From the NCBI RefSeq assembly GCF_007164525.1, contig NZ_AP019791.1, positions 1,103,501 to 1,167,500 on the forward strand: a stretch of DNA of 64,000 nucleotides, in the 5' to 3' direction. Shown here piece by piece: positions 2,614 to 41,612 of this stretch (its first letter is position 1; each line of letters begins with the position of its first letter). The notes beneath the pieces were generated by a model. It was not told the origin of the DNA. It ran no database searches and saw only the letters and a program-made list of their open reading frames with translations. The translations under genes and the position numbers were made by a program. This DNA is from Rubrobacter xylanophilus. Its GTDB lineage: Bacteria; Actinomycetota; Rubrobacteria; Rubrobacterales; Rubrobacteraceae.

Positions 2614-3880
2614 TTAGCTAGGCTTGTCCGGGTCAAGTCCCAAAGTTTCTGCAATTTCCTCCAAGAGCAAACTCGCTCTCATCGCTGCGTGAGAATCACC
2701 TCCTCCCTCGCGCGCTCTTCCGAGTGCCGCTCCTTTAGCTGCTCCATATTCAGGTAGTACCTCCCCGTAACCCACTCCTCCGAAATCTCGACGGCTAGGG
2801 CCGTAACCAACCTTAGACACGCCTCCCTGTTCGGGAAGATCCTCACCACTCTCGTTGTACGCTTTATATCTCCTGGTTGAACCTCTCGAGCCCGTTGGTA
2901 GTACGGATGCGCCGCTGATGAGCCTCCGGGAAAGCCAAAAGCACGAGAGGCACTCCTCGATGTGCTCGGCCACCTTCGGATGACTCCTTCGCCACCGATC
3001 GGCCAACTCCTCCTGGGCGGCTCGGAGGGCTAACTCTCTGCTGGGAGCGTCCAAGACCCCTCGCAAGCCCTCGGCCAGCTCCTTACGCTCGCCGAAACTC
3101 ACCATCCCAAGAAGGTTCCTCGCATAATGCACTTGGCAACGTTGCCAACTTGTCCCTTGGAAATGGCGCTCTATGGCGCTCTTTAGGTCCTCGTGGTCGT
3201 CGCTGATCACCGGTTCCACTCCCTTTAGCCCCTAGCCTTCAGCGAACGGGAAAGATCCTGGTAGGTGGCCTCGCTCTCTCTGTGTCGGCCACCTCCACGG
3301 CGAGGATCTCTCGGTAGCCATCGTCGCGTACCGCCGAGACGACGAGCACACCTTCGCTCACCACCCTGACCTTCTCGTAGCGAGCGTCCACAAAGAGGTA
3401 GGGGTAGGCTTCGACCTCTAGCGGGCGGCATCTCCAGCTTTCAAACTCCGAGTCGAGCTTGCCGGCAAGCTCGCTGACCAAGCTCTTGTAGAAGGAGGTG
3501 CCGCACAGCTCTTCGGTTATCTTCCTGACCTTCCTGGTGGAAACACCTTCCACGTACATCTCCATGAGCGCCAGGACCAGGGCCTTCTCGTTGCGCTGGT
3601 AGGGGGCGAAAAGCTAGGTGGAGAAGGCGCCCTCCCTATCCTGGGGTACCAGAAGGTCGAGTGTGCCAACCCTGGTTTTGAGCTTCCTGGGGTTGTAGCC
3701 GTTGCGGTGCCCTTTGCGGTTTTGGGTACGTTTGTAGGGAGCTGCGCCTACGTGCTCGGTGCTCTCGGCTTCCAGGAGCTGCTGAAGCATCCTCTCGACG
3801 ATCCGGCGTAAGAACTCTGGATCGTCCAGTAGGATTTGTTGCACCAACTCCTTGTCCGCCCTACGATGATGGTCGGCCAT
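2614..3880 (-). pseudogene. IS256-family transposase, degenerate
   Basis: The reading begins at the ATG at 3880 behind AAGGAGG and encodes a mutator-type (IS256) transposase: an N-terminal region ending DLLVPQDREGAFST, a middle part with VDARYEKVRV, and VISDDHEDLKSAI with the second catalytic Asp. It is broken by an in-frame TAG at 3614-3616, by frameshifts near 3290 and 3235, and by further shifts after about 2950, where the NGLERFNQEI block sits in another frame. No intact protein can be made. A hairpin-rich stretch ending near 3988 may be one terminus; I could not match a second inverted repeat near 2600. Confidence 0.85.
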
Positions 3881-12265: not shown

Positions 12266-12284
12266 CCTGGATTATTCATGAGAG
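12266..12284 (+). repeat. left terminal inverted repeat of the IS1380 element
   Basis: CCTGGATTATTCATGAGAG matches the reverse complement of the right end at 15 of 19 positions, with the ATTATTCA core identical. IS1380 ends characteristically begin CCTG. Confidence 0.8.
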
Positions 12285-12313
12285 AATTCGGGGTCTGCTG
12301 AGGAGCGCACGTA

Positions 12314-13614
12314 TCAGAGGTGCTGGCCGGGGTGCCCGGAGGCCAGGTGCAGGCGCACCTTCGTGAGCAGTTGGCGTACCTTCCCACCGACCTTGATGAG
12401 CAAGAGCCTCAAGGTATCCAGCTGCATTCGCCTCACGCCTACCTCGACGAGCTTCCTGCGCAAAGCGTCCAAAAGCCAATAGGCCGCCGCGTGCAAAAGG
12501 AGCCGGAACTGATTGGCAAAGAACCGATGGCAGCTCAAGCGGTCAGCTTTTATGGCCCGCTTGAAGTCCTTTATCCAGCTTTCCGCTTCTCCGCGTCTTA
12601 TGTACCAGTCGCAGAGCTCCTCCGGCTCAGGATCGGAGCGACTGGTGACCACAAAGCGAGTGTTTTCTCCCTTCTCCAAAACCTCCACTTTGTAGATGAC
12701 CCTCCGCGAGTGCTCCCAACTACCCGCCCGGTATGAGCCGCTCGAAACCAGCCGCACCTTCTCGCCCGCTCTCTCCTCGGACTCTCGTTTGGCCCGCTCA
12801 AGGAGGTCTTGGGTGAGCTCTTCGAGCCTGGGATTGGAGATGAGCCCGATGGTGTAGACGATGCCCTCTTTTTCGCAGTAGTCGTAGATCTCTGGTACGG
12901 CAAAGCCCGCGTCCGCCCTGATCTCGATGTGCACCTCTTCTCCCCACGCCTCCCTGAGCCTCCTCACGATGCGTTTGAGGATCGCCAATACTCCGCGGCT
13001 GGCGCGGGTGTTGCCACACCTCAACACGGCGGTGATCAGCTGACCGGTGTCCCCGTCAAAGACCAACAGAGGGTGGAGGATGCGCTCTTGATAGTAGCCG
13101 TGGTAGTAAGAGCCTTCCTGCTCTCCGTGGGCGGGTCCGTTGCATCGAAGTCCAGAAGGATGCGCGAAGGCACACCATCCTTGCTGCGCTCTCTGACATA
13201 GAGTTCGCCCAACGCTTCGGCGATGCGCAGGCAGTCCTTCACACCCGGAGCGTTCTCCAGACGCGAGAGGGTAGGCTGGCTCGCCAGGTCCGTCTCCCTC
13301 TCAGGTAGGCGTCCCAACACGAGCTTCAGCAACGGGTCAGTGCGCAGCGTGTCGGCGTCGTTCTGGTCCTCGTAACCGCAGGCTATCTGGTAGACCCGCT
13401 GCCTGACCAGCGTTGCGAGCGAGCGCCTGACCGACCGCTGGCTCCGCCACTCGGGGACGTAGCTGGCTATAGCCTCGCACAACCCGAGCTCACCATCGAT
13501 CTGAGCTAGCCACAGGAGGCCGCCGTCTGAAGTGATGCGCCCGCCGTCGAAGGCAGCCTCGAGTTCGAGGGGAGCGGTTTCGAAACGCAAGAGGTGTGGG
13601 GCACAATCTTCCAT
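12314..13614 (-). pseudogene. IS1380-family DDE transposase with one frameshift
   Basis: The N-terminal 165 codons run from the ATG at 13614 and include the first catalytic Asp in LLDFDATDP. A loss of one G near 13130 shifts the frame. The rest then continues as HGEQEGSYYHGYYQ, IEIRADAGF (second Asp) and RRGEAESWIKDFKRA (Glu), ending at 12314. Apart from the single-base change the gene looks complete, so this is recent decay, an error in the read, or (less likely) programmed frameshifting. Confidence 0.85.
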
Positions 13615-13688
13615 AGGGAGCCTTACCTCCTTTGGTCAGCCTTGGACAGCTAGACCGTATACAGGAGCAGGCTCCCTCTCTTCAACTA

Positions 13689-13707
13689 CCTTCGTGAATA
13701 ATTCAGG
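13689..13707 (-). repeat. right terminal inverted repeat of the IS1380 element
   Basis: Read on the minus strand this is CCTGAATTATTCACGAAGG, the partner of the left end. It lies 75 bases upstream of the transposase ATG. Confidence 0.8.
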
Positions 13708-13769: not shown

Positions 13770-14188
13770 CACGACCCTGCTTGAGTCGAGCGCACTTCCG
13801 ATTGCCGGCATCGTTGAACCTGCCATGCGGGAAGGTCAATGCACGAACCCGTTCTATCGGATTCACCGCTGGTTCGCCCGACGCCTCGGTTCTCGGTTCC
13901 GGTAGATTTCGACCGGTCTCTCTTGATACTGACGAAGCGAGCATTTGGGACACCTTTCCGGGTGAGGTGCCGCTGGACGGCGCGGTGGCCCTGGATCCCT
14001 TCGTCGGGGGTGGAACCAGCCTGGTGGAAGCTATGCGCTGTGGCGCCCACGTGATCGGAGACGACATCGACTCGGTAGCCACGTTCATCACGAGATTTGA
14101 ATTGTCAGCAGCCGCCTACAATCCCCAGAGCGAGGAGATTGCCGAGCTCCGCGCTGCATTTGGCGAGTCAGGGTTACGTACTGCGTGA
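13770..14188 (+). pseudogene. DUF1156-like DNA methylase, N-terminal remnant
   Basis: One frame reads LLESSALPIAGIVEPA and NPFYRIHRWFARRLGSRFR, typical of the start of DUF1156 methylases. It then stops at a TAG near 13903, and another frame resumes with EASIWDTFPGEVPLDGAVAL and DPFVGGGTSLVEAMRCGAHV, the SAM-binding motif I, followed by GDDIDSVATFITRFEL. The reading ends at 14188, so the catalytic motif and more than 700 residues are missing. It lies directly against the 3' end of the DUF262 gene and 60 bases from the IS1380 end. Confidence 0.65.
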
Positions 14189-16213
14189 TCGAAGAGATCG
14201 ACTCGCCACGGCCTCTTCAGGTTCGGCAAGGATTACCTTCTCGACGTACGCCTTGAACTCTGCGATCGTTGTAAAGAAGCGGTAGCCGGCCCGGTTGGCG
14301 ACTTCCTCGACCTCCCGAGGCTCGTTGATCAGGATCGCGACCGGCTGGCTGTATCCGGGCTGGAGACCCTCGGGCCACGCCAGGTCGAAGACGGCCAATT
14401 CTTCTCCTGAACTCTCGTCGACGCAGGTGAAGTCTATGTGGGGAGAAGGGAGACCGTTTTCTTCTGCCCAGAAGGCGCACTCGAGTTTCTCGTCGTCCTC
14501 TTGCGAAGCAGCGACGCCCACCGAGATCGCCGCGGGGGCCTTCTCTCCCGCGGGCAGGCTTTCGAGGTGCGTGCGGGTGGGTTCGCCGGCGACATCCTCC
14601 CGGAGACTCTTGTCAACTAGCAGGTCTTCGAGGAGGCGGTTAGCGGCATCCGCGAGGAGCTGGCGGCGGGCGGCGAGGAACCCGCGGTAGTTCTCGACGC
14701 GCCACAGGTTGCGATCCATGGGGATCCACTGCGACTCCAGCGCTCCCGACTGCTTGTTTTCGACTTCCTCGAAGTACTCGTGGGGCGGTTGATCGGAGAG
14801 TTCCTGGTTGGTCTTGGCCGTCAAGAACGCGAAGTTGGTCAGCGCGTTTACTTCGGTCTTGTCGTAGCCGTTACTGTAGAGGTACGATTTTGGGAAGATG
14901 TGGTGGAGCTGCAGCGAGCTGACCTTCCCGAGCAGGTGCCTAGAGAGGAGGTTGCCGTCGCCCCAGTCCCTGGCTCCCCATACCCTGGTGAGGAGGTACA
15001 GCAGCGGGTAGAACCTCGCTCCCTGGCTCCACCCGGAGAAGTCGCCCTCCCTGACCGTCAGGTCTCCCCGACTCTGCCTGAGCTGGGCGATCAACCTGTC
15101 CAGGGGATCCGCACCATCGGCGGTTCCGTCGACGGACTTCTCCCCTTCTATGGCGGCGAGGTCCTGATTGATGACCGTCTCCGTAGAGCCGGTGTAGCGA
15201 CCCCAAAGGAAGCTGTGGACGTACCAGTAGAGAAGCTTGCCCTGCTGACGATGGTCGGTGAGGTGACCTCCGTTCTGGTGCAAGAAGCGGCTCATTACCG
15301 GGAAGGCGTAGCGGCCCCCGAGTACGCGGTCGTGGTCGAGGCCGAAACGCGAAGAGACGAGGTTGAGGAGCATGTCTATGTAGCGCTCGACGCGGTCCAA
15401 GCCGTCGGCCACGATCTGGGTGTCGGCGTTACGCAGCGCGGAGAAGAGCGCCTCGCCGGTCACGATGGTGTTGATGTTGCACAAGAGCCAGTCCATCTCG
15501 AAGTTGAACCCGGCGCTGCGCCACTTGGAGAGTCGTGCCCTCAGCTCGTCCCTGGCCTCGGGCCAGCCGGCGCCGATGCGCGCCAGCGCGAGATCGCCCT
15601 TGGACAACCTGGTTCCGCCGCTGTTGACCAAGTTGAAGATCTCGACGACTACATCGACGGTCTTGTCCCGTCCGGTCACCTCCTCGATGGGCAGATCCAC
15701 CTGCTTTATAGCGTCGATGGCGTTGAGGCGGTTGATGTACGTCTGGAACTTCGGGGCAAGTTCCGGGTTGCCGAACAGATTTTCTATAGCCTTTCCCGAT
15801 CCTATCTGCATCAGCTCCGTGACGCTGACCCACAAAGGGTTGCCGTCCATCCTGGTCGGCCTGTAGAACTCGAAGCCCTCGTCGTCGAGATGGAAGTAGA
15901 GGCCCGTGAAGGTGGCGGCGTTGCCGTCGAAGAAGGGCGGCGGCGTTCCCCGGATAATTCCGTAGAGCGTCGTGATGCGCTGCTGTCCGTCGAGTAGCAG
16001 CTTGACCGTGCCCGGTGGCAGGCTCTGGTCCCCGCGCGACTCAGCGGTGTCCGCGCTGGTTACCCACGCGAGAAGGCCTCCGATAGGCCAGCCCCGGTAT
16101 AGCGACAGCATGAGGCTGCGGACCTGCTCGCGGGTTCAAACGTAACCCCGCTGGAACTGGGGCAGGGCCATGCTGCCGACCTCTATCTGACTAAGGATGT
16201 CCGACACTTTCAC
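14174..16213 (-). pseudogene. DUF262/DUF1524 GmrSD-like protein with an early in-frame TGA
   Basis: From the GTG at 16213 the frame reads VKVSDILSQIEVGSMALPQF then QRGYV, meets TGA at 16136-16138 where family members have Trp, and continues without a break for 650 more codons. The DUF262 part has LLLDGQQRITTLYG near residue 76. The DUF1524-type HNH part has LQLHHIFPKSYLYS near residue 437 and NALTNFAFLTAKTNQ after it. Such proteins are modification-dependent or NTP-driven nucleases (GmrSD, type IV). Restart at the ATG at 16162 or 16111 would lose the QRGYVW region or its context. It starts 60 bases after the helicase stop as the third gene of that operon. Confidence 0.8.
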
Positions 16214-16273: not shown

Positions 16274-19200
16274 CTATGCACCGTTGTCGCCGGGCACGAG
16301 TGCCATCCAAGCAACCAAGTTGACATCCTCTTTTTCAATCTCCGGCAAGGGCTCTACCTCTGGCGGCGGTTCGAGGCCGAGATCTTCGACAAGCCGAATG
16401 ACCGCCGCAACCCGTTCTCTCACGTCCCCGTGCGCATCCAGGGCCTTACGCATCATGCGCTGGATGCGGGTGTCGTAGGGCGCCTCGATGGTGTCGAGGA
16501 GCCGATGCAGGCGGTCGGTGCTGAGGTCACCTGGAGGATGGGTACGCAACAGGTCGGCGGCGTCGCGCATCGGCTTGGGTATGGCGGGCTGCGTGTTTGC
16601 CGGGTCGGTGGCCTCGATCCAACGCTCGAAGATGTGCCGGCGGGCTGCCTCCCAAGCGTCGTATGCGAGATCGGCGATGCTCTCTGGCAGCACTCGCTCG
16701 GTCTCAGGGGAGCAGACCGCCTTGCCGAGACAGGTTAGGGTGTCTTCTACTATCGCTTCAGCCTGGATGCTCGCTCCGTCTTCGGCGATCGGAACCCAGC
16801 GGTACTGGGGTCTCGGATGGTCACCGACTCGGGCGCAGAAGACGAACCCGCCGGGACCTTCAGAGATCTTGCCGCTACCAGCTACCCATGGGAGGTCCTT
16901 GACGGAGTTCCGCCAGTGAGTGTCGTTTAAGGCGTTGGCCAGTTCACGCCGGAACTCCTCACCGGAGAGGGTGCCAGTGTCCTCTGCTTGTTCAAAGAGC
17001 GTGGCGTCTTCCCTGAAGAGAGCTTCTATCTGCTCTTTGGTGTGGGCAAAGACTTGGTCAGAGGACTTGGAGCCTGGGACAATCTCTCCTTCAACGCCGA
17101 TGGACTTGGCGGCTTGGGTGATCTTGCGCTGCAGGGTAGCCTCCAGACCGAGCAGGGCATCGAGATCCTTGCTTGGGAAAAAGCAGCGCAGATAGACACG
17201 GCTGTGCGGAGACCCGATGCGGTCTATGCGGCCGTGGCGCTGAACGAGGCGCATCGGGTTCCAGGGCAGGTCAAAGTTTATGATGTGCCGCGCTTGCTGG
17301 AGGTTGACGCCCTCCGCGAGCACGTCCGTTGCGATCAGGAGGTCGTACTTGTCCTCGTTGCGCCCTGCTGGGGCCTGCGATGAGACTGGAGCGAAGCCGA
17401 AGAGAACATCTTCACTACCGACGCTGCTGCCGGTTACGGTGGCGAGTCTGTCACGGTACGGCGCTAGGCGCGGATCTTCGGCGCATTCCTTCTCCAGCCG
17501 CTTCTTTATCCACTCGACGGTGTCAGCGTAGTATGAGAAGATAATAACTTTACGCTTGTTGCGCTCGTCATCTTTGGAGACGGCCTCGTCCTTCGCCTCT
17601 TTTGCGATCTTCACGAGAGCCTCGACGAGCGCGTTGAGCTTGGGGTCGGACTCGTTGCTCACCTGCTCGGCCTCTGCGGCGAAGCCTTCGAGGAGTTCCC
17701 GGTCGGCCCGGACGGCTTCGCGCAGCTTTTGGACGTCGTAGTTGCTTGCATGGTCGCGGCGGCCCCCGGCGATGGCCTCCGGGTCGAACTCGTCGGAGTC
17801 GGTGCGGTTCCAGGCGGCCAAAGCATCGCTGGTCAAAACCCACCCCTTTTCCAAGGCTTCGAGGAACCTGGTGTGGCTACACGCCATCTTGCGGCAGGTA
17901 CGGGCGAAGGCGTGGGCGGAGGACTCGAAGCGCTTGAGGAGGCCGGAGCTCAAGAGACCTGCGGCTTGCAGCTCGAAGGCGTCGGGCTCGCCGTCAGTCC
18001 GGTACGCTGACGGTGCGTAGCGGGCGAGGGTGAGCTGCTTGCCGTAGTCGAAGTCCTCAGGCGACGGGAGCGGGCTGTCTGCAGCCTTGACGTCCGCCCC
18101 GAGCGCGTGGGCGAAGCGGGGGAAGAAGTCGCGTAGCAGATCGTCGAGCTCGTAGCTCTCGCGCAGGACAGTAGGCTGCGGGAACGCTATGGTTATCTCG
18201 GTATCGCCCCTCTTAATGCGCTCATTCGGGTAGAAGCGCTTGACGAAGCGCCGGGTACGCCTCACGGCGACGGCGTCGAGTACATCGAAGAGCTTGTCCG
18301 GGGAAAGGTTGTCCGGGTCCTCGGCGTTAGCCTCTTTGAAGTGTTTCCTCAAGGACGGGATACCTGCTTCCAGGAATGCGGCGTCGTTGCGGATGAAGTA
18401 CGAGAGCAGGTAGTAGAGATCCCACAGGCTATTGTTAACCGGGGTGGCGGTCAGGAGGACGACCTGCTTCGGAGGAGAACCCGCGAGGAGCTGCCTGAGC
18501 GTCTTGGCCCGGTTGGTCTCGGGGTTGCGGTAGGCGTGGGCCTCATCTATGACGACCATCGCGTAGTCGTTGGGATGATGGCGAAGCACCCGCTTGCCGG
18601 TCCCGCCGAGGGCGGGCTCTCCCGCAAGTTCCTGGAACGAGACGACTTGCACGCCGCCGAGGAAATATTCGTCGAGGAATTGCTTCCACGGACCATCCCG
18701 TAGGGCGGCCGGAGCGATCAGGAGCACACGCTGTCGCCTATCCTGTGTAGCCTGGCGGATCAACTCGCCCGCGAGGTAGGTCTTGCCGAGACCGACACCG
18801 TCGGCGATGAGGACCCCGTTGTTGCGGCGAAGGTAATCCATGGCGCGATATAGGCCATCGCGCTGGAAACCGGTGAGGTCGAGACCTGGCGGTGACTCTT
18901 CACGACCCAGCTCGTTCTTGTAACGTTCCCAAAGCATCTTGAGGTAGATAACGTAGGGATCGTACTCGCCGAACCGCTTCTCATAGAGTCCGGCAAGATC
19001 GAAGGGCTGCGCGGCATCCCAGTTATCCTCGTACCAGTCCATCACCTCTTTAACGACACTGGGCTGGTATTGGCCGAGGTTCAACTCGATGTTGCGGGCA
19101 AGACCGGCGTAGGTGAAGTTGGAGGAGCCCGCCAGCACACCGTCGTGGTTGGTCTCGACGATGAAGGCTTTGCCGTGCAAGAACCTTCCCTTGAGGAGCC

Positions 19201-19615
19201 TGACCTCGACGCGTTCGGAGCGAAGCCACGCGATCATGCGGCTTATCTGCTCGTCAGCTTTGCGGGAGAAGGCGATGAGGTTCCGGTCTTCCTCCATGAG
19301 GCGGTGATGCTCCTTGAGAGCCTCGGCAAGACGGATGCGGCCATCTTCCTCGGGGAGGTGGTCGCCGGTGAGGTGGCGCAGACGGCTCAGGTCCTCGGCC
19401 ACGTCCGGCTCGGCCCCGAGCATCAGGCGGACGTGAGCGGCCTGCTCTAACTGGTCGGCGAGCAGGTTGAACCCTCCAAGGTTGAAATAGGCGGTGGAGA
19501 TCGCAAGCTTCGGCGGCTCCTTCATCGCGCCGAGGAGCCCCTGCCAGTAGCCCGCGAGCGCCTTCGCGACCGTCTCGCCCTTCTTGTTGGTGACGACCTC
19601 CGGCTTGAAGATCAT
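16274..19615 (-). CDS. PLD-domain superfamily 2 helicase
   Basis: The 1113-residue product begins at the ATG at 19615, which overlaps the methylase stop by 4 bases. An N-terminal phospholipase-D-like domain (about 30-190) holds HGKAFIVE and GSSNFT. The SF2/SNF2 core follows: GVGLGKT near 275, VVIDEAHAYRN near 355, LLTATPVNN, and in the second lobe ATDVLAEGVNLQQA and QRHGRIDRIG near 797. The C-terminus (850-1113) is helical with no recognised domain. Combined with the methylase upstream, this suggests a restriction or DISARM-like system in which the helicase moves on DNA and the PLD domain cuts or binds. Confidence 0.88.
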   Translation of the reverse strand: MIFKPEVVTNKKGETVAKALAGYWQGLLGAMKEPPKLAISTAYFNLGGFNLLADQLEQAAHVRLMLGAEPDVAEDLSRLRHLTGDHLPEEDGRIRLAEALKEHHRLMEEDRNLIAFSRKADEQISRMIAWLRSERVEVRLLKGRFLHGKAFIVETNHDGVLAGSSNFTYAGLARNIELNLGQYQPSVVKEVMDWYEDNWDAAQPFDLAGLYEKRFGEYDPYVIYLKMLWERYKNELGREESPPGLDLTGFQRDGLYRAMDYLRRNNGVLIADGVGLGKTYLAGELIRQATQDRRQRVLLIAPAALRDGPWKQFLDEYFLGGVQVVSFQELAGEPALGGTGKRVLRHHPNDYAMVVIDEAHAYRNPETNRAKTLRQLLAGSPPKQVVLLTATPVNNSLWDLYYLLSYFIRNDAAFLEAGIPSLRKHFKEANAEDPDNLSPDKLFDVLDAVAVRRTRRFVKRFYPNERIKRGDTEITIAFPQPTVLRESYELDDLLRDFFPRFAHALGADVKAADSPLPSPEDFDYGKQLTLARYAPSAYRTDGEPDAFELQAAGLLSSGLLKRFESSAHAFARTCRKMACSHTRFLEALEKGWVLTSDALAAWNRTDSDEFDPEAIAGGRRDHASNYDVQKLREAVRADRELLEGFAAEAEQVSNESDPKLNALVEALVKIAKEAKDEAVSKDDERNKRKVIIFSYYADTVEWIKKRLEKECAEDPRLAPYRDRLATVTGSSVGSEDVLFGFAPVSSQAPAGRNEDKYDLLIATDVLAEGVNLQQARHIINFDLPWNPMRLVQRHGRIDRIGSPHSRVYLRCFFPSKDLDALLGLEATLQRKITQAAKSIGVEGEIVPGSKSSDQVFAHTKEQIEALFREDATLFEQAEDTGTLSGEEFRRELANALNDTHWRNSVKDLPWVAGSGKISEGPGGFVFCARVGDHPRPQYRWVPIAEDGASIQAEAIVEDTLTCLGKAVCSPETERVLPESIADLAYDAWEAARRHIFERWIEATDPANTQPAIPKPMRDAADLLRTHPPGDLSTDRLHRLLDTIEAPYDTRIQRMMRKALDAHGDVRERVAAVIRLVEDLGLEPPPEVEPLPEIEKEDVNLVAWMALVPGDNGA

Positions 19616-22600
19616 ATGCTGACCTCCGTGGCCAGCGGCGCGAGTTGCCGATGGTGGTCGAGGACGGCGGAGAGGCGGGACTCGTAATTCCATCCCTCGT
19701 GGAAGGTCGAGTAGATGACGCGCAGGTCGTCTTCCTTCAATCCGTAGAGCAGGGCGACCGCGGCGTCGAGTCGGGCGATCAGTTCGTCGCGCTCCCCGGC
19801 GCTCACCGAGCCGACTGGGACGCCGACCTCCGCCGCCCACTCAGAGAAGCGCTCGTCAACGGCGGCGAGCCGACCAGAGATCTCGACCAGAGATCTTCAC
19901 TACCTCGTTTCGCAGCGGGTCATCGCGGTCTGGGCGTGGGATGGGGAAGGCGTTGAGGATGTAGAAGTTGACGTGGGTCTCGACGAAGCGGCGAGCGTAC
20001 CAGTCCAGTGGTATCGACGCTAGAACGCCGAGGAGATACGCTTCGTCGGAAGAGTCTCCACGAGGCCACGCCAGATAGGGCGCGGTGTTGGTAAGGACGA
20101 GTTCGCCCGGGATTAATGCAGTAACGACCGTGCGTTGGTTCGTGCGGTTCGTAATATCACGGAATGCGATCCGAGGGTGCAAACACGGCAACGTCGAGGG
20201 ATCGTTGACCCACTCCAGCGGGAAGAGGCTGAAGGCAGAGCGGGGGTTTCGCTGCTGGTTGCGACGCTTGATCTGGAGCACCTTGGTGATGCAATCTGGA
20301 TCGGCCCAAGCGTAGTATTCGCCCGTATCCGGATTCCAAAGGTCGAAAGATGAGCCTTTGTACACCGGCCACGCATTAGCGGGTGGCTCGTCTTGGAAAA
20401 TCATGTGTTTCTTGTCTTTGGTGGCGTCAAGCTCGCGTATGGGCCTGGCTCGCCAATCACGATTTTCGTCGTCGAGACGTGGGTGAGCGCGGAGCTTCGC
20501 AAAGACTTCTGCTGCCTCGGGAGACGGGAGGAGCGGGAACGACGCGGTAGCCGTCCACGTGCGGAACGATTCGGTGGAAAACTCCGCGGGATCTTCTCCG
20601 ATTCCAGCGTCGTAACGCTCGTGCGAAGGATACGGACCGCGAAGACGCAGGGTGCCGGCATGATCTTCGCCCTTGCGGATCGAGACGAGTCCGACCGTGT
20701 ATTGTGGATGCACATCTGGGAAGACCCAATGCTTATTGTTGAGCAAGAAGGTTACGTCGTCGAACGTCCCGCCGTCGAGAACGGCCTGCCGCCACGGTTC
20801 GGAGCCGCTCGCGGAGAGCGCGGAGCGAGGGAGGACGACTCCGACGGCCCCATCTTGGCGAACGAGGTTCCAGAATCTCCAGGAGAACGCCTTGTAGAGG
20901 TCCGGATCTCCGGTGCCCATGCCAGGGTACGGACCGGAGAGCAGCAGGCGGCGCAGCCGCTCCGCGTCGGCGACCGCGCGCTCGTACTCGGCGGCGATGT
21001 CGGGCCGCTCGCGTTCGAGGCGTTGGATTTTGCGTCGCTGCTGCGGTTGAGAGAAGCTCTTCAGGCCGGGAAAGCGCAAAGCCCAGAAGCCGAGCTTCTC
21101 GACGGTGGCTTCCTCCCACGGCGGGTTGCCCAAGATCACGTCGAAGCCAGGGCGATCGCGGAGGAAGACCTCGGGAAATGCAACCGGGAAGTGTAGCGCG
21201 TCCATACGTTCCGCGACCTCACGGGCGTGGTCCGTGTTCATCTTGAACAAGTCTTCGGGAGAGAAGCCATCCGGCAGTGTGGCCTCGCCGATCCGGGCGG
21301 CCACGATGCGGTCGAATAGCCCGGCGACTGAGGCGACGGCTCGCTCGACCTCGGCGGCGGTCTCGCGTGCCTCGGCTATGTCGGAGGTGGTAGCGTCCGA
21401 GATCTTCGCCAGGCGGCGAAGCGGTTCCTCAGCCTTGCGAAGCTCCTCGCGTACCGGTTCGGCGAAGAGCGAGCCTTCCCCCACGCCGTGCACGAGCTCG
21501 GCCGTGGCTTCCTCTATCGTGCCGATGCCGGTGAGCGAGTTGCCGACAGCGAGGTTGTGGTCGAGGAATGAGAGCGGGAGGCCGGGGACGAAGGTGTGGA
21601 TCCACATCCCGACACGAGCGAGTTCCACCGCGAGCGGGTTCAGGTCCACGCCGTAGACGCAGCGGCGGGCGATCAGGCGCCGCAGCAGCGAGGAGTTCTC
21701 TATCTCAACGGTATCCGCGAGCTGGCCGAGAGCATCGTTCGCAGCTTTTCGCAACGCGTCAAGCTCGCGGGTGACGTGAGGAATGGGATGGTCCGCGAGG
21801 AAGGTCGTGTAGCGGGCTTCGAGGCGGTCCACGACGGCGGTCAGGAAGTGGCCGGAGCCCATCGCGATGTCGGCGACGCGGAAGTCGAATAGCATCTCGG
21901 CGGCGTCGGCTTCTTTGCCTTCGTCGAGCAGGGCCTTTACTCGCTTCAGGTGTTCTTCGAGGGTGGGGTCAACGGAGTGGGAGATCAGGTGGTCCACCGC
22001 GAACGGCTTGGTGAAGTACGAGCCCGTGGACTTCCTCACGCCGGACTGATTGTGGAGGTAGACCTCCCCCTTCTGCACGACGACGCTATCTCCATCTCGG
22101 GCTGGCAGGTACACGCCGTCGCTGTCGACCGTCAATGGCTGGTCCGCAACAGATAGTTCGGACTCGAGGAGTCCCTCGTAGATGGTTCCGAACTCGCGCA
22201 CCGAGAGCGAGCGGAAGTCTATCGGGCCGATGACGTCGTCGGGACTTCTGTCAACGATCAGTGCGGTGAGCGCCGGTCCGAACTCTGCGTTGGTCAGAGA
22301 GAGCTCTTCGATAATCCTGCCGACGGGATTAACGTCAGGGTCTGTGGAGAACAACCTGCCGTTGTAAGGAGGGACGCCCCAGCGCACGTCCCCCTCGTTG
22401 ACTGCGTGAAACAGCGCCTTGCAGCTATCCCAAAGGTCGGTTTGTGTATCCGCACCGCATTCGATTTCCTCGGTCAGTGGGTTATCGAAGCCGAGGTCGC
22501 AGCCCTCGTTGATGGTATTGGACAGGTCGCGGGCGATGGTCTTCAGCGCATGTCGGGTGTACTCACTGTTGACGTTCAGCGGCAACAGGCGTGAGTCCTC

Positions 22601-23725
22601 GGCGTAGGCGACGAACATCAGCCGGAACAGGATAGTGAGCGCAGTCCGGTAGTGACGCTCCAGGTCTTCCTCGCCGGTACCGCCAACCCGGTCCGCGACC
22701 GCAACCGCTAACCGGGGAACGACCTGTTTGTAGACACGCTCGCGCAGCCTCTCTGAGAGTTCGCTGGTGTAGATGCTCGACGCTTGCTGTATCTGCGATA
22801 TGGTGCCATCTTCGGCGAGGGCTCTAGAGGAAAACAGCAAGTCCAGGTAGCCTGCCTGATCCGAGGGCAGCAGCGGCAGGTTCAGTTCGACGAATGTCTC
22901 GGCCCGCCCGCGCTGGCCGGGGGCGCCCGAGGTCGAGGTCGAGTACAGACGGAGCACACCACTCCTCTCAGCAACTACCCACGGGATGTTGTCTCGATCG
23001 GCGTGAGCCAGCGCGTAGGTTACCGGCGTTTGGTTCTCAAAGCGGGCGGCTGGCTGGTCGGGCTGCTCGCTCTCCTGCAGAAACACCGCGACCGCCTGCG
23101 CCTTCCCCCCGGACGAACGCAAGACGCTATGTTGCGCCTTTTGTTCTATCTCGTAGCCTAGTTCGCGTACGAGGTCCTGGCCGCGCCGGTTCAGAAGCGG
23201 CTTGGAGCGATCTGTGGCGTCTTTCCAATCCGGTCGCTGCGGGACACCGTGCAGCAACTCGTGGGTTGCGAGCAATCCCTTGTTGCGAAGGCCCAGATGC
23301 TCGTCGGGTTCACCTTCCAAGGTTTCGGCGAGGAAACGGAGGGCGAGGTGACGGTCAGGTTCGCTAAGCGCGGCGTCGGCCAGTCTTTCGGCCCGCTCGT
23401 AGTCCATATACACCACGGGAGGGTCGTCACCCGCCGGGCCGCAGACCACCGCCCGGCGTTGTCCTCTATCAGAGTAAGAAACCATGACTAGGAGCGGAGC
23501 GGCACGATGGCCGTGCCGCTTCTTCCAGATCTCGCGAATCGTAGTCGTGTTCGGCTTCGAGTTGGCCGTGCCATAGACAACTTCGAGCCCATCCTTGCCG
23601 GGACCGGTCCAGCGGTAGGCAGGGCGAATATCTTTTTTCTCCAACTCTGGAGCGCGCCATGTAGCCTTGCGTGCATTAACCTGATTCAAGAATGAACCAT
23701 TCAACGTAACCCACCCTGTATGCAC
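19612..23725 (-). pseudogene. Eco57I-like N6-adenine methylase, C-terminus frameshifted by a 13-bp tandem duplication
   Basis: From the ATG at 23725 one frame runs 1289 codons to 19856. It has SAM motif I as ADIAMGSGHFL near residue 620, the YGVDLNPLAVELARVGMW block, and catalytic NPPW near 868 (FDVILGNPPWEE), then a target-recognition-like region. The frame then fails at a duplicated 13-mer. The next frame supplies the true tail (SAGERDELIARLDAAVALLY, then GLKEDDLRVIYSTFHEGWNY), ending at 19612. Removing one repeat copy gives a 1366-residue protein whose stop overlaps the helicase start (ATGA). The truncated form keeps the catalytic motifs and might still work. Confidence 0.85.
19871..19896. 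repeat. 13-bp perfect tandem duplication
   Basis: CGACCAGAGATCT occurs twice back to back (19871-19883 and 19884-19896). Because 13 is not a multiple of 3, two copies shift the methylase frame and one copy restores it. The gain or loss of a copy by slippage would switch the protein end and the coupling to the downstream helicase. Confidence 0.95.
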
Positions 23726-40817: not shown

Positions 40818-41612
40818 CTAGGCTACGAGGAGCACCGGCCAGCGGCCTTCCTCGAAGAGCCCGCGCAGCTTTATGCCGGCGCTGAAGGGCAAGACCAGAA
40901 GCCCCGTGCCCCCCACCTCCCTGAGGACACCCGAGAGACAGGGTTCGTCGAAGCGCCGCAGCGTGCGCGAAGCGGCTCCGGGAAGCCGCGGCACCTCCGG
41001 TGCGCTGCCTCCGGAGAGCTCCGGAGGCACTAACAGTACCAGCGGAGCCCGCCAGGAGCCCGCCAGGTAGGCGGCGGCCTCCAGGGCCCGGTCGGACTCG
41101 GGGTCGCCGGACCATACGACCACGACGGTACCACCCGGTCGCAAACGGCCGCTCAGAACCAGCACGGCCCCGCCGCGCTCCGCGAGCAACTCCCGGACCC
41201 CCTCGTCGGCGAGGCCCGCCGGGCTGCTCAGCACGATCAGGTCCGTTCCGGAAGCCGCGGAGACGGCGCTCGAGATCCCCGTCCCCTGCACCGTCCTGAA
41301 CGACCAGCGAACCCTCCGGCCCGCGGCCACCTGCCGCAGCGTCTCCTGCGCCCGGCGCGCGTAGGCCCTCATCCCCCGCTCCATGGTCATCCCGTTGAGC
41401 TCCCGCACAACCCCCGAGAACGGATCCACCGCCCTCAGGAACGGCAGCTCGGCCAGCCGCAGCAAATTGGCGTCCTCCACGAACATCGCGAGAAGCTCGC
41501 TGCGCAGGCGGGCGGCGAGCTCCGCCGCGCTCTCGAGCACCGCGGGGTTCTGGGGGGAGGCGTCGAGGACGACGAGCACCCGCCGGACGAAGGCCCGCGG
41601 CTCATCCACCAT
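40818..41612 (-). CDS. universal stress protein family, two-domain
   Basis: 264 residues with two Usp-like halves: VRRVLVVLDASPQNPAVLES opens the first and GGTVVVVWSGDPESDRALEA the second. The ATP-loop GxxGxx9GS/T motif is not clear in either. The ATG overlaps the end of the Lon-like protease gene by 11 bases, so the two are co-translated, suggesting a stress-response operon. Confidence 0.72.
   Translation of the reverse strand: MVDEPRAFVRRVLVVLDASPQNPAVLESAAELAARLRSELLAMFVEDANLLRLAELPFLRAVDPFSGVVRELNGMTMERGMRAYARRAQETLRQVAAGRRVRWSFRTVQGTGISSAVSAASGTDLIVLSSPAGLADEGVRELLAERGGAVLVLSGRLRPGGTVVVVWSGDPESDRALEAAAYLAGSWRAPLVLLVPPELSGGSAPEVPRLPGAASRTLRRFDEPCLSGVLREVGGTGLLVLPFSAGIKLRGLFEEGRWPVLLVA

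What the first reader, a model, noticed from the sequence alone, without database searches (positions are those of the whole stretch)
19612..23725. A 13-bp tandem duplication breaks a defence methylase and could act as a switch
CGACCAGAGATCT is present twice in tandem at 19871-19896. With one copy the methylase is a continuous 1366-residue protein whose stop overlaps the helicase start. With two copies it is cut after 1289 codons with a wrong tail and coupling to the helicase is lost. Everything else in the gene is intact. This may be a phase-variation point or a very recent mutation.
Basis: seen in the sequence. Interest (0 to 1): 0.72.

Follow-up and report, generated by a model that had tools for sequence, protein, structure and literature searches.

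The report
Frameshifted defence methylase in a hot-spring bacterium
A perfect 13-base tandem duplication has knocked the end off a DNA-methylase gene of an anti-virus gene pair in a hot-spring bacterium; it looks like an ordinary recent loss-of-function mutation in a decaying defence region, and nothing found shows that it works as an on/off switch.

Summary
CGACCAGAGATCT occurs exactly twice in tandem at 19871-19896 and nowhere else in the 3.02-Mb chromosome. The length matches Rubrobacter xylanophilus AA3-22, a Nanopore plus deep-Illumina assembly. The duplication shifts the frame of a large Eco57I/PglX-type adenine methylase: 1289 codons remain, the last 8 wrong, and the 85-residue C-terminus is lost. 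Ten full-length homologues (actinobacteria and haloarchaea) run through the site without the duplication; eight end in an ATGA overlap with the PLD-SNF2 helicase start, as the window gene's original frame does. The lost tail is still conserved and the gene has no other lesion, so the mutation is recent. A phase-variation switch is not supported: two copies only, no repeat in relatives, no excess of such duplications in 464 kb of the genome. The island is also decaying: the DUF262 gene after the helicase has a TGA where relatives have a conserved Trp codon, the flanking IS1380 is frameshifted, and a DUF1156 methylase survives as a fragment. The helicase is intact and has its own GGAGG site, so coupling loss is partial at most. 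Mixed populations cannot be tested without the raw reads (DRA008612).

The parts
19871..19883 (.). first copy of CGACCAGAGATCT (+ strand order)
19884..19896 (.). second copy of CGACCAGAGATCT, directly adjacent
19856..23725 (-). truncated Eco57I/PglX-type adenine methylase ORF, 1289 codons, last 8 (DLWSARRR) wrong; SAM motif DIAMGSGHFL and catalytic GNPPW present
   Evidence: PADLOC profile PDLC03620 matched only to position 1296 of 1378, intact relatives to 1368-1372
19612..19869 (-). out-of-frame conserved C-terminus of the methylase (85 codons + stop) that is no longer translated in frame
   Evidence: tail 60% identical to G092 and 39% to G169; continuous in 10 full-length homologues
16274..19615 (-). 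intact PLD (HKD)-SNF2 helicase, 1113 aa, start overlaps the original methylase stop (ATGA)
19623..19627 (-). GGAGG, Shine-Dalgarno-like, 7 nt before the helicase ATG
14174..16213 (-). DUF262 (GmrSD_N) gene downstream of the helicase, broken by a nonsense codon
16136..16138 (-). in-frame TGA at the conserved Trp of FQRGYVW; homologues have TGG
13781..14188 (+). 135-aa remnant of a DUF1156-type DNA methylase
12266..13707 (-). IS1380-family insertion sequence, transposase frameshifted, 81% identical to intact 457-aa copies elsewhere in the genome

Best explanation
A recent, spontaneous 13-bp tandem duplication has frameshifted the methylase gene of a two-gene anti-phage module (Eco57I/PglX-like adenine methylase plus PLD-SNF2 helicase) and removed its conserved last 85 residues (shown). 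The truncated protein keeps its catalytic motifs but lacks a C-terminus present in every full-length relative, so it is probably inactive or unstable (inferred). The helicase is intact and still has its own ribosome-binding site, but is probably of no use, or harmless, without a working methylase and recognition partner (inferred). The module sits in a probably horizontally acquired defence island that is losing function gene by gene: DUF262 nonsense codon, methylase remnant, dead IS (lesions shown; acquisition inferred). The two-copy state could in principle revert by slippage at a low rate, but there is no sign that the site evolved as a switch.
For: Exact duplication, unique in the genome. 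Ten full-length homologues (G092, G169, G245, G297 and plasmids of Rhodococcus, Euzebya, Mycobacterium, Halorubrum, Paenarthrobacter, Halalkalicoccus) read straight through the site with no duplication. Eight of the ten have the ATGA overlap with the helicase start. The out-of-frame tail is 60% identical to G092, much like the rest of the protein, with low second-position change, so it has not yet decayed. No other stop or frameshift over 3.9 kb. The helicase is complete with its motifs. The DUF262 gene has a TGA for a conserved TGG. IS1380 is frameshifted and a DUF1156 remnant lies beside it. The methylase, helicase and DUF262 genes have no counterpart in the single same-genus genome held. 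The assembly combines Nanopore and deep Illumina data and is polished (PMC6706694).
Against: No reads or sister strain could be examined, so fixation of the two-copy form is not shown. Loss of function is inferred from conservation, not assayed. DUF262 is not always linked to the pair, so its lesion is only contextual. The duplication lacks the flanking microhomology of a typical slippage event, so its origin is not explained.
Confidence: 0.82

Rival explanations
1. The duplication is a phase-variation point: slippage between one and two copies reversibly switches methylase and helicase expression.
For: Period 13 is not a multiple of three, so gain or loss of a copy toggles the frame. The gene is otherwise intact and is a defence methylase, a class often phase-variable; pglX of Streptomyces switches through a G tract (PMC4365076).
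Against: Only two copies. Published classes put tracts with few repeat units in the low-rate 'proto-mutable' and 'mutable' classes and attribute phase variation to hypermutable multi-unit tracts (PMC4235727). No repeat or array at the site in ten relatives. A separate non-repeat nonsense mutation lies in the same operon. The helicase has its own Shine-Dalgarno, so switching of the pair would be incomplete.
Confidence: 0.07
2. Assembly or polishing error: the real chromosome has one copy.
For: With one copy the gene would look like all its relatives.
Against: 6.9 Gb of 2x151 Illumina reads for 3 Mb plus Nanopore reads and Pilon polishing (PMC6706694). The whole 26-bp repeat fits inside one read. 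A 13-bp exact duplication is not a typical Nanopore or Illumina error.
Confidence: 0.04
3. The 13-bp repeat is the scar of a mobile element that inserted with a 13-bp target duplication and later excised, leaving both copies.
For: The tandem copy has no flanking microhomology, as expected for a filled-in staggered cut. Insertion sequences are present nearby.
Against: The DDE_Tnp_1-type elements with more than one copy in this genome show about 4-bp target duplications, where one could be read, not 13. No Ku gene was found for end joining. Other IS families were not surveyed.
Confidence: 0.07

Closest known systems
DISARM class 1 (DrmMI methylase, DrmD SNF2 helicase, with DrmA/DrmB/DrmC)
   Same: Methylase matches PADLOC DrmMI profiles (221 bits) and the helicase matches DrmD profiles (148 bits) and NCBIfam DISARM_DrmD (182 bits against a cut-off of 610).
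   Different: No DrmA or DrmB gene was seen beside the pair. The genome's only MZB/DUF1998 (PF09369) protein lies 1.7 Mb away. The helicase carries a PLD domain at its N-terminus.
ARMADA (BrxHII-like helicase, PglX-like methylase, YprA helicase)
   Same: SNF2/RapA-type helicase next to a PglX-like methylase, found in bacteria and archaea (PMC12458937).
   Different: No YprA-type helicase beside the pair. Here the methylase precedes the helicase and the helicase is fused to PLD.
Type IIG-like large methylases (PADLOC PDLC03620)
   Same: Best profile hit, 785 bits for the truncated protein and 853-911 bits for intact relatives.
   Different: The partner helicase is not part of classical type IIG; a fused endonuclease domain was not demonstrated.
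Pgl/BREX pglX phase variation in Streptomyces
   Same: A frame-changing repeat in a defence methylase.
   Different: A mononucleotide G tract switching at 1e-2 to 1e-4 (PMC4365076), against two copies of a 13-mer here.

Membership tests
Phase-variable (hypermutable repeat) locus | multi-unit repeat tract in or before the gene | tested here: not met
   exactly two copies with no extra bases
Phase-variable (hypermutable repeat) locus | repeat present or variable at the same site in relatives | tested here: not met
   no duplication in ten full-length homologues
Phase-variable (hypermutable repeat) locus | mixture of states in one population | not testable with these tools
   raw reads DRA008612 not available here
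DISARM | core DrmA and DrmB (DUF1998) genes in the operon | tested here: not met
   genome-wide search for PF09369 gave one hit, 1.7 Mb away; no other neighbour fits
DISARM | adenine methylase DrmMI and SNF2 helicase DrmD | tested here: inconclusive
   partial profile matches only; NCBIfam DrmD 182 bits against a cut-off of 610
ARMADA | YprA-type helicase beside the methylase and helicase | tested here: not met
   neighbours
PLD-SNF2 helicase plus Eco57I-like methylase pair | methylase of about 1320-1410 aa directly followed by an HKD-SNF2 helicase, usually ATGA-overlapped | tested here: met
   G092, G169, G245, G297 and six plasmids
Type IIG restriction-modification (PDLC03620) | Eco57I-type methylase domain with SAM motif and NPPW | tested here: met
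   Pfam Eco57I above cut-off; motifs present
Type IIG restriction-modification (PDLC03620) | fused endonuclease activity | not tested
   no nuclease domain was recognised by Pfam in the methylase

The most novel reading that the evidence does not exclude
The duplication is a real low-frequency reversible switch: populations of R. xylanophilus AA3-22 carry both one- and two-copy forms, so the defence pair is on in a minority of cells, by a two-copy long-unit repeat rather than a microsatellite.
Probability: 0.06. Interest if true: 0.5.

Novelty: new member of a known kind. Interest (0 to 1): 0.15.

Why it matters
It documents the decay of a defence island caught early: one clean frameshift in a methylase whose lost end is still conserved, next to an intact helicase and a stopped DUF262 gene. 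It is also a caution for annotation: AA3-22 should not be credited with a working copy of this system. A sober side result is that the methylase plus PLD-SNF2 helicase pair, annotated 'hypothetical protein' and 'helicase-related protein' on plasmids, is a recurrent two-gene module in actinobacteria and haloarchaea.

Tried and rejected
IS-excision scar: the multi-copy DDE_Tnp_1-type elements in the genome have about 4-bp target duplications where one could be read, and no Ku was found. Slippage by flanking microhomology: none present. A genome-wide tendency to such duplications: in 464 kb of AA3-22 this is the only frame-breaking exact tandem duplication of period 12 or more. Separate expression of the lost tail: its frame has only one GTG and one TTG internal codon, both well inside it. 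Solved structures: no useful template for the C-terminus, since a profile of nine homologues matched PDB chains only over the methylase core. Structure prediction was not run, because the intact homologues come from loci outside what the tool states it accepts and the intact form is not encoded in the window. Literature searches on tandem-duplication switches in restriction systems gave no close precedent among the titles listed.

Full report
What is there. The window lies in a single 3,022,875-bp chromosome, the exact length published for Rubrobacter xylanophilus AA3-22 (PMC6706694). The 13-mer occurs only there in the genome. Simulated windows with the same dinucleotide content never gave a 13-bp tandem duplication. 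In 464 kb sampled across the genome, no other exact tandem duplication of period 12 or more breaks frame.

What it does to the gene. The minus-strand gene is a large Eco57I/PglX-type adenine methylase. Its best profile is PADLOC PDLC03620 at 785 bits, and Pfam Eco57I is above cut-off. The open frame ends after 1289 codons, with 8 wrong residues after KISGR, and the frame for the last 85 residues is orphaned. The PADLOC profile is matched only to position 1296 of 1378, while intact relatives reach 1368-1372. The SAM motif and GNPPW are in the retained part.

Relatives. Full-length homologues were found in four other genomes (G092, G169, G245, G297) and on six plasmids from Rhodococcus, Euzebya, Mycobacterium, Paenarthrobacter and two haloarchaea. 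All ten run through the site without a duplication and keep a C-terminus. In eight, the stop overlaps the start of a PLD-SNF2 helicase as ATGA, the same junction seen in the original frame of the window gene. Head and tail of the window gene both align to the single continuous homologue, meeting at the ISGR that is encoded in the duplicated bases.

Age. The orphaned tail is still 60% identical to G092, no worse than the rest, and there is no second lesion in the gene. The duplication is therefore recent relative to the divergence of these genes (inference).

The surroundings. The helicase is complete and has GGAGG 7 nt before its ATG, so it can probably be translated without coupling. The next gene, a DUF262 (GmrSD_N) protein at 14174-16213, has TGA at 16136-16138 where G036, G170 and G011 have TGG in FQRGYVW. 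An intact homologue used as query independently counts one TGA. Beyond it lie a 135-aa remnant of a DUF1156 methylase and an IS1380 whose transposase is frameshifted relative to intact copies. The methylase, helicase and DUF262 genes have no match in the single same-genus genome held. DUF262 is found with the pair in G170 and near it in Euzebya, but it also occurs without it, so its lesion is context and not proof.

Switch or mutation. A frame-changing repeat in a defence methylase naturally suggests phase variation, and pglX in Streptomyces is a real case (PMC4365076). The defining features were tested: a multi-unit tract (absent), a repeat at the site in relatives (absent), and a mixture of states (not testable here). 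Published rate classes place tracts with few repeat units below the hypermutable class responsible for phase variation (PMC4235727). A second lesion in the operon that is not in a repeat fits decay better than switching. Assembly error is unlikely given the read types and depth.

Origin of the duplication. It has no flanking microhomology. An insertion-element scar was considered, but the multi-copy elements examined leave about 4-bp duplications where readable, and no Ku gene was found; other IS families were not surveyed. The origin is left open.

Filing. The pair resembles the methylase and helicase of DISARM and ARMADA (PMC9142583; PMC12458937), but the YprA/DUF1998 components are not beside it: the only PF09369 protein is 1.7 Mb away. 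It is described here as a methylase plus PLD-SNF2 helicase module, not as DISARM or ARMADA.

Noticed in passing
   Followed up: yes
L128-L133, L134, L136, L084: The methylase plus PLD-SNF2 helicase pair recurs on actinobacterial and haloarchaeal plasmids and chromosomes, annotated as 'hypothetical protein' and 'helicase-related protein'.
   Followed up: partly
L129 16415-17263 and 18570-20702: In Euzebya pacifica the pair is followed by a gene annotated as a phosphorothioated-DNA-binding restriction endonuclease and, nearby, a DUF262 gene.
   Followed up: no
L084 15803-19303: In G169 the pair is followed by a 1166-aa protein with AAA helicase, RNase H-like and PD-(D/E)XK matches.
   Followed up: no
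window 2614-3231 (-): Broken transposase-like frame, judged from its sequence only, with a 10-bp tandem repeat at 3163-3182 that looks like chance.
   Followed up: partly
window 41044-41067: An 11-bp unit repeated 2.18 times inside an open frame; whether it lies in a real gene was not checked.
   Followed up: no
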